A stretch of 37,816 nt of DNA from Burkholderiales bacterium 39-55-53 (GTDB lineage: Bacteria > Pseudomonadota > Gammaproteobacteria > Burkholderiales > Burkholderiaceae_C), in NCBI GenBank assembly GCA_002282445.1, contig NCJK01000008.1:1-37816 (forward strand). The letters are read 5' to 3'. A model generated the notes under the pieces. The model did not search any database. It was not told the origin of the DNA and was given only the letters and a program-made list of their open reading frames with translations. This document shows positions 11,287 to 14,948 of this stretch, one piece after another. The position numbers and the translations under genes are program-made. The stretch's first letter is position 1. The number at the start of each line of letters is the position of its first letter.

Positions 11287-11315
11287 TTGTTGGACGCACA
11301 TGCCCTGCCTACACT
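11287..11315 (+). promoter_or_regulatory. Predicted mmsA promoter
   Basis: A -35 TTGTTG (11287-11292) and a -10 TACACT (11310-11315) are separated by 17 bases. The ATG of mmsA lies 32 bases downstream of the -10. The -35 is a modest match, as expected for an activator-dependent promoter with the LysR palindrome just upstream. Confidence 0.45.
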
Positions 11316-11346
11316 GCGTCATCTTTTCCACATAACGAGACTCCCC

Positions 11347-12858
11347 ATGACACAAGCCCACATCGCGCATTACATCAATGGCGCAGTTGCCAACGGCAGC
11401 AGCACACGCACACAACCCGTTTACAACCCCGCCACAGGCGCGGTCACTGGCCATGTGAGCTTGGCCAACGTGACCGATGTGAATGCAGCCGTCGCAACAG
11501 CACAGAAAGCTTTCCCAGCTTGGGCCGATACCCCGCCCCTGCGCCGAGCCCGTGTGATGTTCAAGTTCCTGGAATTGTTGAACGTCAACAAAGACAAGCT
11601 GGCCCACATGATCACGGCTGAGCACGGCAAAGTGTTCACCGATGCTCAAGGTGAAGTCAGCCGTGGCATCGACATCGTCGAATTCGCCACAGGCATCCCT
11701 CAGTTGCTCAAAGGTGACTTCACCGAACAAGTTTCCACTGGCATCGACAACTGGACCATGCGTCAACCTCTTGGCGTGGTGGCTGGCATCACGCCATTCA
11801 ACTTCCCTGTCATGGTGCCCGCATGGATGTTCCCTGTCGCCATCGCTGCTGGCAACACCTTTGTGCTCAAGCCCAGCCCGATTGACCCCTCACCTTCGTT
11901 GTTCATTGCTGAATTGCTCAAGCAAGCTGGCTTGCCAGACGGCGTGTTCAACGTGGTGCAAGGCGACAAAGAAGCGGTGGACGCTTTGTTGGTTCATCCC
12001 GACGTGAAAGCTGTCAGCTTTGTAGGCTCCACACCCATCGCCAACTACATCTATGAAACCGGCGCACACCACGGCAAGCGCGTGCAAGCCCTAGGCGGCG
12101 CGAAAAATCACATGGTCGTCATGCCCGATGCAGACGTCGATCAAGCCGTAGACGCGTTGATCGGCGCAGCCTACGGCTCTGCTGGCGAGCGCTGCATGGC
12201 CATCAGCGTGGCCGTGTTGGTGGGTGATGTGGCTGATCGCCTCATGCCAAAACTGATAGAACGCACCAAGGCTTTGAAAGTGCTCAACGGCGAAAACCTT
12301 GCCGCCGAAATGGGCCCCATCGTGACCGACATTGCGCACAAGCGCATCACTGGCTACATCGAGCAAGGCGTGAAAGATGGCGCCAATCTGCTGGTGGACG
12401 GTCGTCATTTCGATGGCGCAACCGCAGGCGACGGTTGCAAGAATGGTTTCTGGATGGGCGGCACCTTGTTTGACAACGTCACGCCTGAGATGCGCATCTA
12501 CAAAGAAGAAATCTTTGGCCCTGTGCTCAGCTGCATGCGCGTGGCCGACTTGGCCGAAGCCGTGAACCTCATCAACGCCCACGAATTCGGCAACGGTGTG
12601 AGCTGCTTCACACGCGACGGCAACGTGGCCCGTGAATTTGCACGCCACATCCAAGTGGGCATGGTTGGTATCAACGTGCCAATTCCAGTTCCTATGGCCT
12701 GGCATGGTTTTGGTGGCTGGAAGAAGAGCTTGTTTGGCGACATGCACGCCTACGGCGAAGAAGGCGTGCGTTTCTACACGAAGCAAAAGAGCGTCATGCA
12801 ACGTTGGCCTGAGAGCATTGGCAAGGGCGCTGAGTTCGTCATGCCAACGTCTAAGTAA
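11347..12858 (+). CDS. mmsA: CoA-acylating methylmalonate-semialdehyde dehydrogenase
   Basis: MmsA converts (methyl)malonate semialdehyde plus CoA and NAD+ to propionyl- or acetyl-CoA, in valine, beta-alanine or inositol breakdown. The 503-residue product begins [13 protein letters not shown] and has the ALDH fold. The nucleophile is Cys283 in [11 protein letters not shown]. The general-base glutamate of ordinary ALDHs is replaced in QALGGAKNH, a known hallmark of MMSDH, and [10 protein letters not shown] and [17 protein letters not shown] also match. The ATG at 11347 is chosen; an upstream in-frame start would add 20 residues unlike the family. It is divergent from a LysR gene. Other mms or iol genes are not in the window, so the pathway remains open. 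Confidence 0.94.
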
Positions 12859-12903
12859 GTTGTAGTTCTTTGGGGTTGGCGCGGTTGCGTGTGCATCGGA
12901 AGC

Positions 12904-12969
12904 TTGGGGTGACATGTTTTGCTCCTCGTCTGCTGCGCATCCGAATATCGCGGCAACATGCCACCCCAA
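12904..12969. repeat. Hairpin repeat element, copy 1 (core on minus strand)
   Basis: Fifteen-base arms (TTGGGGTGACATGTT and AACATGCCACCCCAA, one mismatch) enclose a core. The 42-base core at 12916-12957, read on the minus strand, begins GTTGCCGCGATATTCGG and ends GAGGAGCAAAAC. It is 39/42 identical to the core of copy 2, while the outer arms are unrelated to those of copy 2. No T-run follows either arm, so it does not look like an intrinsic terminator. The family is unknown to me; it behaves like a REP/MITE-type hairpin. Confidence 0.8.
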
Positions 12970-13019
12970 TCTACCGCTGTACACGCTAGGGCGCTGCGAG
13001 CTCAGAAACGGGTGATAAG

Positions 13020-13055
13020 CATGGACCAATGCTGTGTAAAACAGCGAGGCCCATG
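13020..13055. repeat. Imperfect inverted repeat beside the second hairpin element
   Basis: CATGG/CCATG outer arms and GCTGT/ACAGC inner arms, with a single mismatch and a small internal loop between them, form a stem of about 12 pairs. It touches the left end of copy 2. It does not contain the shared core and may be a separate structure or a decayed flank. Confidence 0.5.
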
Positions 13056-13158
13056 TTGTCAGAGAAGGGGCGGGCTGGGTGGTTTGTTGCAGCGACATTC
13101 GGATGCGCAGCAGACGAGGCGCAAAACACACCGCCCAGCCCGCCCCTTCTCTGACAAC
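13055..13158. repeat. Hairpin repeat element, copy 2 (core on plus strand)
   Basis: Two 28-base arms (13055-13082 and 13131-13158) are complementary at every position but one, and that one is a G-T pair. The left arm starts GTTGTCAGAGAAGGGGCGGG. Between them is the 42-base core at 13086-13127, starting GTTGCAGCGACATTCGG and ending GAGGCGCAAAAC. It differs from the core of copy 1 at three positions only. Pairing continues partly into the core edges. There is no T-run at either end. Confidence 0.85.
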
Positions 13159-13226
13159 TGCAACAACAAACCCACACAAGCAAGCTAATATCCCTGCACA
13201 CAACAACAGAGACTTGAGACATCTGC

Positions 13227-14948
13227 ATGAGTGACACCCAGTTTGACTACATCATCGTCGGCGCAGGCACAGCCGGCTGCTTGCTCGCCAACCGCCTGAG
13301 CGCCAACGCCAGCAAACGCGTATTACTCATTGAAGCTGGTCGCAAAGACGATTACCACTGGATACACATACCCGTTGGCTATCTGTACTGCATTGGCAAT
13401 CCACGCACTGACTGGCTCTACAAAACAGCACCCGATCAAGGTCTGAATGGCCGCAGCCTGCGTTACCCACGCGGCAAAGTGTTGGGTGGGTGCTCCAGCA
13501 TCAACGGCATGATTTATATGCGCGGCCAAGCGCGTGACTACGACCAATGGGCCGACATCACAGGCGACGCACGCTGGCGTTGGGACAATGCACTGCCCTA
13601 TTTCAAGCTGCACGAGGACCATTACCTCGGTGCTAACGCGTCGCACGGCGCTAAAGGCGAACGCAGCGAAGTGCTGCTGGCCGACAACACGGTGTACGGC
13701 GAAACCCTGCGCCACCACATTGCAGGCGGCGAATGGCGCGTCGAGAAACAACGCCTGCGCTGGGATGTGCTGGATGCATTTGCCCAAGCTGCGGTAGAAG
13801 CCGGCATCCCCGCCACCGACGACTTCAACCGTGGCAGCAACGAAGGTGTGGGCTACTTTGAGGTGAACCAAAAAAGCGGCTGGCGTTGGAACACAGCCAA
13901 AGCTTTCATTCGTCCCACTTGCTATGCCCGCCCCAACTTTGAGCTTTGGTCATCTGCACAGGTGGCCAAGCTGGTCATGAGCACGGATGCTGACGGCTCG
14001 CAGCGTTGCACTGGCGTCGACGTGTGGACAGGACACGGCTATGTGACCGTCACCGCCTCACAGTCTGTCGTCCTTAGCGCTGGTGCTATTGGCACACCGC
14101 AAATCTTGCAGGTCTCGGGCCTTGGGCCTGCCGAGCTTCTCAAACAGCATGGCATTGAACCGCTGATTGATTTGCCTGGTGTAGGCGCAAACCTTCAAGA
14201 CCATTTGCAAATTCGCTCGGTCTTCAAGGTGCAAGGCGTAGACACCCTCAACACCTTGGCCAGCAGTTGGTGGGGCAAAGCCAAGATTGGTTTGGAATAC
14301 GCCTTCAAACGAACAGGCCCCATGAGCATGGCGCCTTCTCAGCTGGGCGCCTTCACCCGCAGCAGCCCTGACCAGCCCTACCCCAACATCGAATACCACG
14401 TGCAACCGCTCAGCCTTGATGCGTTTGGTGAACCGCTGCACAGCTTTCCCGCGTTCACCGCCAGCGTGTGCAACTTGAACCCCACCAGCCGTGGCACGGT
14501 GAATATCACCAGCGGCAACTTTGCCGATGCACCCAAGATTGCGCCCAACTATTTGAGTACCGAGGCCGACCGAAAAGTAGCTGCTGATTCACTGCGCGTG
14601 ACACGCCGCATTGCTGCTCAACCCGCCCTCGCCAAGTACAAGCCTGTGGAATACAAACCGGGTGTGCAATACCAAACCGACGAGGATTTAGCGCGCTTGG
14701 CTGGCGACATTGCCACCACCATCTTCCACCCCGTGGGCACTGCGCGCATGGGTCGTGTCGATGACCGGCTGGCCGTGGTTGACCCCGAATTGCGCGTGCG
14801 CGATGGCCGCGGAGGCGTGGTGCGCGGCTTACGTGTGGTGGATGCCAGCGTGATGCCCACCATCACCAGCGGCAACACCAACAGCCCCACGTTGATGATG
14901 GCCGAAAAAGCCGCGCAGTGGCTGGCGCACGAGGCTGAACATGCCTAA
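13227..14948 (+). CDS. GMC-family FAD-dependent oxidoreductase (alcohol/choline dehydrogenase type)
   Basis: This is a 573-residue glucose-methanol-choline family flavoprotein. The ADP-binding motif VGAGTAGCLLANRLS lies at 11-25 and LLIEAG follows. GMC signature 1 is GKVLGGCSSINGMIYMRG (83-100) and signature 2 is SAGAIGTPQILQVSG. The C-terminal catalytic region has HPVGTARMG (His near 501) and NTNSPT (second Asn near 552). Closest types by motif are choline dehydrogenase (BetA) and AlkJ-like alcohol dehydrogenases. No betaine genes are nearby, so the substrate alcohol is open. No signal peptide is seen. The gene is preceded by the repeat-rich spacer and followed by a strong non-terminator hairpin. 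Confidence 0.93.
   Translation: MSDTQFDYIIVGAGTAGCLLANRLSANASKRVLLIEAGRKDDYHWIHIPVGYLYCIGNPRTDWLYKTAPDQGLNGRSLRYPRGKVLGGCSSINGMIYMRGQARDYDQWADITGDARWRWDNALPYFKLHEDHYLGANASHGAKGERSEVLLADNTVYGETLRHHIAGGEWRVEKQRLRWDVLDAFAQAAVEAGIPATDDFNRGSNEGVGYFEVNQKSGWRWNTAKAFIRPTCYARPNFELWSSAQVAKLVMSTDADGSQRCTGVDVWTGHGYVTVTASQSVVLSAGAIGTPQILQVSGLGPAELLKQHGIEPLIDLPGVGANLQDHLQIRSVFKVQGVDTLNTLASSWWGKAKIGLEYAFKRTGPMSMAPSQLGAFTRSSPDQPYPNIEYHVQPLSLDAFGEPLHSFPAFTASVCNLNPTSRGTVNITSGNFADAPKIAPNYLSTEADRKVAADSLRVTRRIAAQPALAKYKPVEYKPGVQYQTDEDLARLAGDIATTIFHPVGTARMGRVDDRLAVVDPELRVRDGRGGVVRGLRVVDASVMPTITSGNTNSPTLMMAEKAAQWLAHEAEHA

What the first reader, a model, noticed from the sequence alone, without database searches (positions are those of the whole stretch)
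12904..13158. Two hairpin elements share a 42-nt core but have unrelated, self-complementary arms
Seen directly: the cores at 12916-12957 (minus orientation) and 13086-13127 (plus orientation) agree at 39 of 42 positions. Their flanks share nothing with each other, yet each flank pair is complementary (15-base arms with one mismatch; 28-base arms with one G-T pair). A conserved apex on changing but base-paired stems is not what a simple duplication leaves. It suggests either a mobile hairpin whose stem is selected as structure, or a small element that inserts into the tip of existing palindromes. Neither copy has a T-run, so terminator function is unlikely. One frame of the core reads RLLRIRM, which may create false ORFs in related genomes.
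Basis: partly seen in the sequence, partly recalled or inferred. Interest (0 to 1): 0.72.

Follow-up and report, generated by a model that had tools for sequence, protein, structure and literature searches.

The report
Bacterial hairpins: fixed tip, changing stems
The two hairpins belong to a family of DNA palindromes scattered through Limnohabitans and some related bacteria: each copy keeps the same kind of small tip but usually sits on its own long stem, so it looks like a turned-inside-out relative of the known REP repeats, probably a copied or mobile element that settles at the ends of genes.

Summary
In detail: 39 of 42 core positions agree and both hairpins fold far better than shuffles (z -4.1 and -10.9). 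One detail is too strong: the inner arms are alignable; only the outer arms are unrelated. The element is not local. A covariance model of tip plus paired arms finds 29 copies in this 2.56 Mb Limnohabitans genome, copies in 45 of 84 genus genomes and in 19 of 141 sampled genera of the family. Own copies (28 measured) are near-perfect palindromes of 20-54 bp, median 31, mostly with unrelated arms but a conserved ~32-nt apex, usually with a C(GNA)G mini-hairpin. Thirty-seven of 37 close pairs have one orientation (minus, plus); own partners share the apex subtype (94% against 69% identity). In the own genome none of 19 loci lies between divergent genes; two are inside genes (uvrA, valS). In uvrA one species has the same apex on wholly different arms. 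Behaviour matches REP/REPIN repeats, but the GTAG/CGTC tag, short stem and conserved stem are absent. A single RAYT-type transposase gene is present, but it is family-wide, so its role is unproven. Verdict: new variant of a known kind (REP-like dimers), with a weak terminator-like T bias on the gene-sense side.

The parts
12904..12969 (-). Hairpin A of the dimer (paired core; weaker pairing continues outward on both sides)
   Evidence: CM R1 58.6 bits, (A is among the sequences R1 was built from); DNA fold z -4.1; orthologous copies in several relatives
12916..12957 (-). Conserved core around the apex of hairpin A, with mini-hairpin TGC-GCA-GCA
   Evidence: 39 of 42 identical to B; alignment A3
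12970..13054 (.). Spacer between the two hairpins, less conserved between species than the hairpins
   Evidence: window against G184: 64 identities, 79 aligned, 95 columns
13031..13045 (+). Small spacer hairpin GCTGT-GTAAA-ACAGC whose stem differs but still pairs in relatives (GCTGCATCAGCAGC, GCTGTGTCAACAGC)
   Evidence: seen by eye
13055..13158 (+). Hairpin B of the dimer, 34-nt arms, 94% complementary
   Evidence: CM R1 56.6 bits, (B is among the sequences R1 was built from); DNA fold z -10.9
13086..13127 (+). Conserved core around the apex of hairpin B
11287..12858 (+). Upstream gene: CoA-acylating methylmalonate-semialdehyde dehydrogenase (mmsA type); ORF as listed, start not checked
   Evidence: TIGR01722 678 bits, above cut-off 448.5; PF00171
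13227..14948 (+). Downstream gene: GMC oxidoreductase, choline-dehydrogenase-like
   Evidence: PF00732/PF05199; below the choline dehydrogenase cut-offs

Best explanation
The pair is one dimer of a REP-like family of palindromic elements. Shown: many copies come as two hairpins in inverted order (minus, plus) 38-175 nt apart; each is a long stem crowned by a conserved ~32-nt apex, and the stem sequence differs between most copies; copies sit at gene 3' ends and sometimes in-frame inside genes; they are present in some species and absent in others at the same place. Inferred: the family spreads as single-stranded DNA. The long stem makes the strand fold out, and the apex (internal loop plus C(GNA)G mini-hairpin, a motif known to be exceptionally stable in DNA) is the part a protein recognises. 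So the apex is constrained in sequence and the stem mainly in pairing. The best candidate enzyme is the resident Y1 (RAYT/TnpA_REP-type) HUH endonuclease, but this link is not shown. How a new copy gets new outer arms (tip transfer between palindromes, or copying of one flank onto the other by template switching) is open. Once settled at a 3' end, a copy may also act as an RNA 3'-end or weak terminator hairpin.
For: Copies: 29 own, 45 of 84 genus genomes, 19 of 141 family genera, own included. Pairing: 87.8% of 880 cells, covariation 0.655 against 0.07-0.12 slid (alignment fitted to the model; 0.468 against 0.08-0.12 on the MAFFT alignment). Dimers: 37 of 37 neighbours within 400 nt are (-,+) among 202 hits that I compiled, many of them orthologues. 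Partner apices in 9 own dimers 94% identical against 69% for non-partners; 0 of 5000 random pairings reach this. Dimers 108 and 112 match position by position, - with - and + with +, as if copied as a unit. Own genome, 19 loci: 9 convergent, 6 codirectional, 0 divergent, 2 unclear, 2 inside genes (ORF heuristic). In-frame inside uvrA, and inside valS at one site in the own genome and in genomes of five other genera (Pfam on own uvrA and three of the six valS). uvrA of G080 has the same apex at the same site on wholly different arms, while its sister G399 has the usual arms. Empty sites. GNA triloop in 39 of 43 (40 by pattern, one of them a false match). GNA mini-hairpin stability: PMC4686876, passages. 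Y1/RAYT gene; among 40 good genus genomes hairpins occur in 20 of 33 with a PF01797 gene and 0 of 7 without.
Against: No GTAG/CGTC tag: any of the four tetranucleotides within 8 nt of the foot in only 3 of 28. The RAYT protein is in all 56 family genomes tested, 28 with and 28 without hairpins, and the gene is not flanked by copies. The 0-of-7 result is confounded by ancestry. Copy number (about 30) is low; REPs usually exceed 100 per genome (abstract of PMC2817692 in the listing). Orthologous hairpins are better conserved (1527 of 1598 aligned positions) than the 800-base flanks (81-95%, mostly 86-92%), more than a purely selfish element needs. I saw no target duplication, but did not search for one systematically. 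The T bias and the fixed orientation favour an RNA role.
Confidence: 0.5

Rival explanations
1. RNA 3'-end element: the hairpins are transcribed in the gene-sense direction and act as terminators or decay barriers; a host protein binds the conserved apex of the RNA. Convergent genes carry one each, which gives the minus-plus pairs.
For: Fixed orientation relative to a preceding gene in 21 of 26 extragenic own hairpins (my count) and in the pairs; T in the first 3 positions after the stem 40 of 78 on the gene-sense side against 11 of 78 on the other; single changes in stems keep a standard pair in 85 of 120 against 65 expected with a 4:1:1 weighting; hairpins better conserved than their flanks.
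Against: A run of 4 T (or 4 A on the other side) within 8 nt in only 2 of 28; the window's own tails have no T-run; copies inside uvrA and valS; 5 of 26 extragenic own hairpins do not fit the rule (window B, 96+, 111+, 114+, and 864-, which is unclear); one orthologous hairpin is flipped in G419; a terminator needs no 32-nt conserved tip.
Confidence: 0.27
2. Tip transfer: the apex with a short inner stem is a small unit that moves into, or replaces, the tips of other palindromes; outer stems belong to the site. (This and the next entry are answers to how arms arise and can hold together with the main reading.)
For: Hairpins 108- and 112- share about 20 bp of inner stem and 108+ and 112+ about 15 bp, with different but paired outer stems; same apex on different stems in uvrA.
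Against: No empty site with both outer arms and no tip was found by eye; the uvrA difference includes the outer arms.
Confidence: 0.25
3. Stem growth: a hairpin at a site lengthens when replication switches template at its foot and copies one flank onto the other, so each copy acquires its own outer arms.
For: Outer arms are locus-specific and near-perfect; in G459 the left half of hairpin A is joined to the right half of hairpin B as a perfect palindrome, with the same base change on both sides, which template switching would give.
Against: Arms are nearly identical between most orthologues, so growth is not ongoing; it does not explain spread of the apex.
Confidence: 0.2
4. Ordinary local inverted duplication without a family.
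For: Only two copies of the 23-nt core, with up to 3 mismatches, in this genome.
Against: 29 own copies by covariance model and copies in other genera.
Confidence: 0.01

Closest known systems
REP / BIME / REPIN repeats with RAYT (TnpA_REP)
   Same: Palindromes, inverted dimers, gene 3' ends (convergent and codirectional), some copies inside uvrA and tRNA-synthetase genes (PMC3733652: abstract, sections 5, 8, 15 and passages seen); a Y1 RAYT-type gene in the genome
   Different: Stems of 20-54 bp instead of 5-13 bp; stem sequence differs between most copies while the apex is conserved; no GTAG or CGTC tag; about 30 copies; RAYT gene not flanked by copies
Rickettsia palindromic elements (RPE)
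   Same: Palindromes inserted in-frame in protein genes (as cited in PMC3733652, section 15)
   Different: Relation not tested; here most copies are extragenic and arms vary between copies
Intrinsic terminators
   Same: GC-rich hairpin after genes; T-rich start of the tail on the gene-sense side of many copies
   Different: Mostly no T-run, very long stems, conserved tip, copies inside genes
Double-hairpin elements of fungal mitochondria (recalled; of the 8 papers listed one, PMC7218506, holds the phrase; not read)
   Same: Recalled as mobile hairpin pairs with changing but paired stems
   Different: Organelle of fungi; relation not tested

Membership tests
Tagged REP (GTAG/CGTC) | GTAG or CGTC motif at the foot of the hairpin | tested here: not met
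   Any of GTAG, CTAC, CGTC, GACG within 8 nt of the foot in 3 of 28 own hairpins (foot placed by a simple pairing walk)
Tagged REP (GTAG/CGTC) | Stem of 5-13 bp, similar within a family | tested here: not met
   20-54 bp, median 31, in 28 copies; arms unrelated between most copies
REP-like / REPIN-like dimer | Inverted dimers of the same subtype | tested here: met
   37 of 37 neighbouring pairs (-,+); partner apex identity 0.94 against 0.69 in 9 own dimers. Single copies also occur (10 of 19 own loci)
REP-like / REPIN-like dimer | Extragenic, at gene 3' ends | tested here: met
   0 of 19 own loci divergent; 2 inside genes, 2 unclear (heuristic ORF calls)
REPIN-RAYT system | RAYT gene in the genome | tested here: met
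   PF01797 48.6 bits, over its cut-off of 23; NF047646 REP_Tyr_transpos 79.4 bits, just under its cut-off of 80
REPIN-RAYT system | RAYT gene flanked by its own repeats, presence linked to the repeats | tested here: not met
   Nearest copy about 13 kb away; RAYT protein found in 28 of 28 hairpin-positive (of 31 outside the genus) and 28 of 28 hairpin-negative family genomes tested, in pieces in three of them. Within the genus 20 of 33 against 0 of 7 points the other way
REPIN-RAYT system | Transposase binds and cuts the hairpin as single-stranded DNA | not testable with these tools
   needs biochemistry
Intrinsic terminator | T-run after the stem | tested here: inconclusive
   2 of 28 have a 4-T run within 8 nt, but T is enriched in the first 3 positions, 40 of 78 against 11 of 78
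Known Rfam RNA family | Match at the gathering score | tested here: not met
   Best match 33.3 bits against a gathering score of 72 (microRNA models), window 12700-13400 only

The most novel reading that the evidence does not exclude
A separate class of bacterial mobile hairpins in which only the tip is inherited by sequence. The tip, an internal loop on an ultra-stable C(GNA)G DNA mini-hairpin, is recognised and transferred as single-stranded DNA, while each new copy takes or builds a different long stem, so that stems can be exchanged wholesale under a fixed tip, as seen in uvrA.
Probability: 0.25. Interest if true: 0.8.

Novelty: new variant of a known kind. Interest (0 to 1): 0.6.

Why it matters
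REP repeats are common noncoding repeats of bacteria, and how they spread and what part is recognised is only partly known. Here conservation is reversed: the tip is fixed and the stem is free. That separates 'what is recognised' from 'what must merely pair' by nature's own mutagenesis, including one gene (uvrA) where the stem differs completely under the same tip. It gives a ready set of substrates for a Y1 transposase; I saw no description of partner repeats for it in these bacteria in the listings, which show only part of the literature.

Tried and rejected
Local duplication only: rejected after the covariance search. The 23-mer search misleads: exact matches are only this locus and its orthologues, none in viral contigs; its three other family hits have 3 mismatches and were not followed. 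A first widened pattern and a second one gave mostly chance hits: the backwards control also fires in many genomes, and 6 of the 30 loci read from it (L082, L083, L085-L088) were real hairpins. Rfam: only microRNA models far below their cut-offs in the best rows. Hammerhead and k-turn resemblances of CTGATGA were considered from memory and dropped: strand order does not fit. Integron attC was considered and dropped from recall: there the ends, not the tip, are conserved. RAYT presence as a marker of hairpin-bearing genera: rejected, it was in all 56 tested. Empty sites as proof of insertion: not decisive. At the window locus G419 and G422 lack the hairpins but nest among bearers, so these are probably losses; at L117 six of seven aligned relatives are empty with overlapping stop codons, which looks like a gain, and the eighth, G184, has an unrelated insert there; near-identical empty spacers in G422 and G423 suggest exchange between species. 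A triloop finder picked wrong loops and was replaced, whose count I lowered by one false match. In one search my slice for arm A was out of register (4 of 15); 14 of 15 is read. A notebook entry calls the G080 form at L111 fused at the apex and gives 29 nt for the L117 remnant in G423; on re-reading, the first is a join of the left half of one hairpin to the outer flank of the other, and the second is 23 nt longer than the empty sites. In the tally the listing was cut by the tool, so 202 hits are not all hits, and many are orthologues of each other; weaker hits were typed in only in part. The G400 hairpin used in model R1 has a T-run after it, unlike most. No structure prediction was run.

Full report
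What is there. The window lies in a Limnohabitans-type genome (G000, 2.56 Mb, 14 contigs). A genus-mate, G184, matches Limnohabitans sp. Jir61 in contig length and sequence. Between an mmsA-type aldehyde dehydrogenase gene (11287-12858) and a GMC oxidoreductase gene (13227-14948) lie two hairpins. Their cores agree at 39 of 42 positions. They fold as DNA with z -4.1 and -10.9. The inverted similarity spans 52 nt, so the inner arms are related and the outer arms are not.

A family, not a local event. The exact 23-nt core is found only at this locus and its orthologues, and not in the viral contigs. But some relatives carry a different tip in the same spacer, and those led to a wider family. Twelve hairpins aligned by their tip gave model R1; 43 gave R2. 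On the 43-row alignment 87.8% of 880 pair cells are standard pairs, 18 of 21 pairs have double changes, and the covariation score is 0.655 against 0.07-0.12 for slid partners. That alignment was fitted to the model; the smaller MAFFT one gave 0.468 against 0.08-0.12. R1 finds 26 hits in the own genome at E up to 10, 22 of them under 0.01; R2 finds 29 at E up to 0.01. In the genus 45 of 84 genomes have at least one, 20 of the 40 good ones. In 399 family genomes 37 have hits at E up to 0.001, in 19 of 141 genera, own genus included, with only the 12 best candidates scored per genome. In 389 genomes drawn from the order the only hits outside the family are weak ones in two genomes of one genus.

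Anatomy. In 28 own hairpins the stem from foot to apex is 20-54 bp, median 31, wobble pairs allowed, and nearly perfect. The apex reads about GCGAYATTC-TGA-[C GNA G hairpin]-GAGGAGCC with several subtypes. The GNA triloop is present in 39 of 43 (one false match removed). GNA loops closed by G-C pairs make extraordinarily stable DNA mini-hairpins (PMC4686876, passages seen); the complementary strand would have TNC loops. This favours a role of the DNA strand in plus orientation, but is not proof.

Dimers. Among 202 hits compiled there are 37 neighbouring pairs within 400 nt, and all 37 are (-,+). Many are orthologues; the own genome has nine. Own partners share the apex subtype: 0.94 identity against 0.69 for 144 non-partner comparisons, 0 of 5000 random pairings as high. 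The partner is the closest apex, or ties for it, for 10 of 18 hairpins. The first 15 arm positions are 0.58 against 0.36. Dimers 108 and 112 are closest to each other position by position, which suggests that a dimer was once copied as a unit, although spacer and outer arms differ.

Where they sit. Own genome, 19 loci (9 dimers, 10 single hairpins) by a simple ORF heuristic: 9 between convergent genes, 6 between codirectional ones (the window among them), 0 between divergent ones, 2 inside genes, and 2 that I call unclear because the flanking frame runs through the hairpin (95) or differs between (864). Of 26 extragenic hairpins 21 have the orientation '- after a + gene' or '+ after a - gene'; exceptions are window B, 96+, 111+, 114+ and 864-. 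The inside cases are uvrA and valS. In valS the same site is occupied in genomes G042, G027, G166, G342 and G257 of five other genera; Pfam was run on own uvrA and three of the six valS proteins. In these seven proteins the plus strand of the model is the coding strand.

How they change. Orthologous hairpins are 95.6% identical in aligned positions (1527 of 1598; 9 comparisons at 5 loci), while the spacer between them has 504 identities in 915 columns (shuffled: 373 in 1011). The 800-base flanks are 81-95% identical, mostly 86-92%. In 15 orthologous sets, 1620 pair cells: 1468 unchanged, 85 single changes that keep the pair, 35 that break it, 25 double changes that keep it, 7 that do not; about 5 doubles would be expected if the sides changed independently. 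However, 12 of these 32 double changes come from the uvrA set, 11 of them from G080 alone. There the whole stem differs from that of the five other species compared, including its sister G399, under the same apex at the same site and in frame. So both slow compensatory change and wholesale stem difference occur. In G419 an orthologous hairpin is flipped. In G459 the left half of hairpin A is joined to the right half of B at the apex. In G080, at locus L111, the left half of one hairpin is joined to the outer flank of the other. Such deletions are what long palindromes suffer.

Gain or loss. L117: six of seven aligned relatives have overlapping stop codons and no insert; the seventh, G423, is 23 nt longer with what looks like an arm remnant; G184, not in that alignment, has another insert. 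L108: five of seven relatives lack the dimer, one has it, one has fused remains. L101, L111, L112, L114, L115: mixed. The tree of the window locus puts the two empty relatives G419 and G422 among bearers (some nodes weakly supported), so losses occur; some empty spacers are too alike between distant species, which points to exchange. By eye I found no empty site that contains the intact stem without its tip.

Enzyme. One Y1/RAYT-type gene lies at G000:C1:922298-922636 (domain range), beside a frame that I take for glutamate synthase (recognised from memory). Among the 40 good genus genomes hairpins occur in 20 of 33 with a PF01797 gene and 0 of 7 without, but kinship confounds this, and PF01797 also catches IS200-type copies. 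The protein is in 56 of 56 family genomes tested, 28 with and 28 without hairpins (28 of the 31 positive genomes outside the genus were used), in pieces in three. TnpA_REP enzymes recognise single-stranded folded REP through GTAG, loop or stem irregularities (PMC8266576, passages), so recognition of a tip is plausible.

RNA view. On the gene-sense side 40 of 78 of the first three bases after the stem are T, on the other side 11 of 78 (26 extragenic hairpins). But T richness over 15 bases is about a third both upstream and downstream in the gene sense (my own count from that listing), and 4-T runs are in 2 of 28. A weak terminator or 3'-end role is therefore possible, not shown.

Comparison. 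The abstract and sections 5, 8 and 15 of PMC3733652 (passages) describe REPs as inverted dimers, next to 3' ends of convergent and codirectional genes, and inside uvrA and tRNA-synthetase genes; the behaviour is strikingly the same. The defining tag and the short stem are not met. I therefore call it REP-like, a new variant, and not a member of the tagged REP families. Searches for an earlier description (listings seen) showed none for these bacteria; a term search in PMC6006769 found none of my six terms; the library lacks most subscription journals.

Noticed in passing
L222 (G184:C3:172050-173330): At the gene junction where the own genome has hairpin L117, Limnohabitans sp. Jir61 (G184) has an insert of about 660 nt with an open frame of 173 residues as I read it and no Pfam match.
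   Followed up: partly
L030 (G452), mmsA-GMC spacer: In G452 the spacer between the two genes is 1070 nt and holds other sequence instead of the hairpins.
   Followed up: no
window 13031-13045: A small hairpin in the spacer between A and B keeps pairing in relatives with different stem bases.
   Followed up: no
L270 (G257 valS): The valS insert in G257 looks duplicated in tandem: GLARSDIAAAGRMS occurs twice in the translated insert.
   Followed up: no
L228 and L229 (G423 and G422): The hairpin-free spacers at locus L111 are nearly identical in two species that are not close in the mmsA-GMC tree, which suggests recombination between species.
   Followed up: no
G000:C1:864k-971k: Eight own copies lie within 60 kb of the RAYT-type gene at C1:922k, and the matching regions of five relatives hold 5-11 copies each (these regions were chosen because they held hits). 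Whether the clustering has meaning was not tested.
   Followed up: partly
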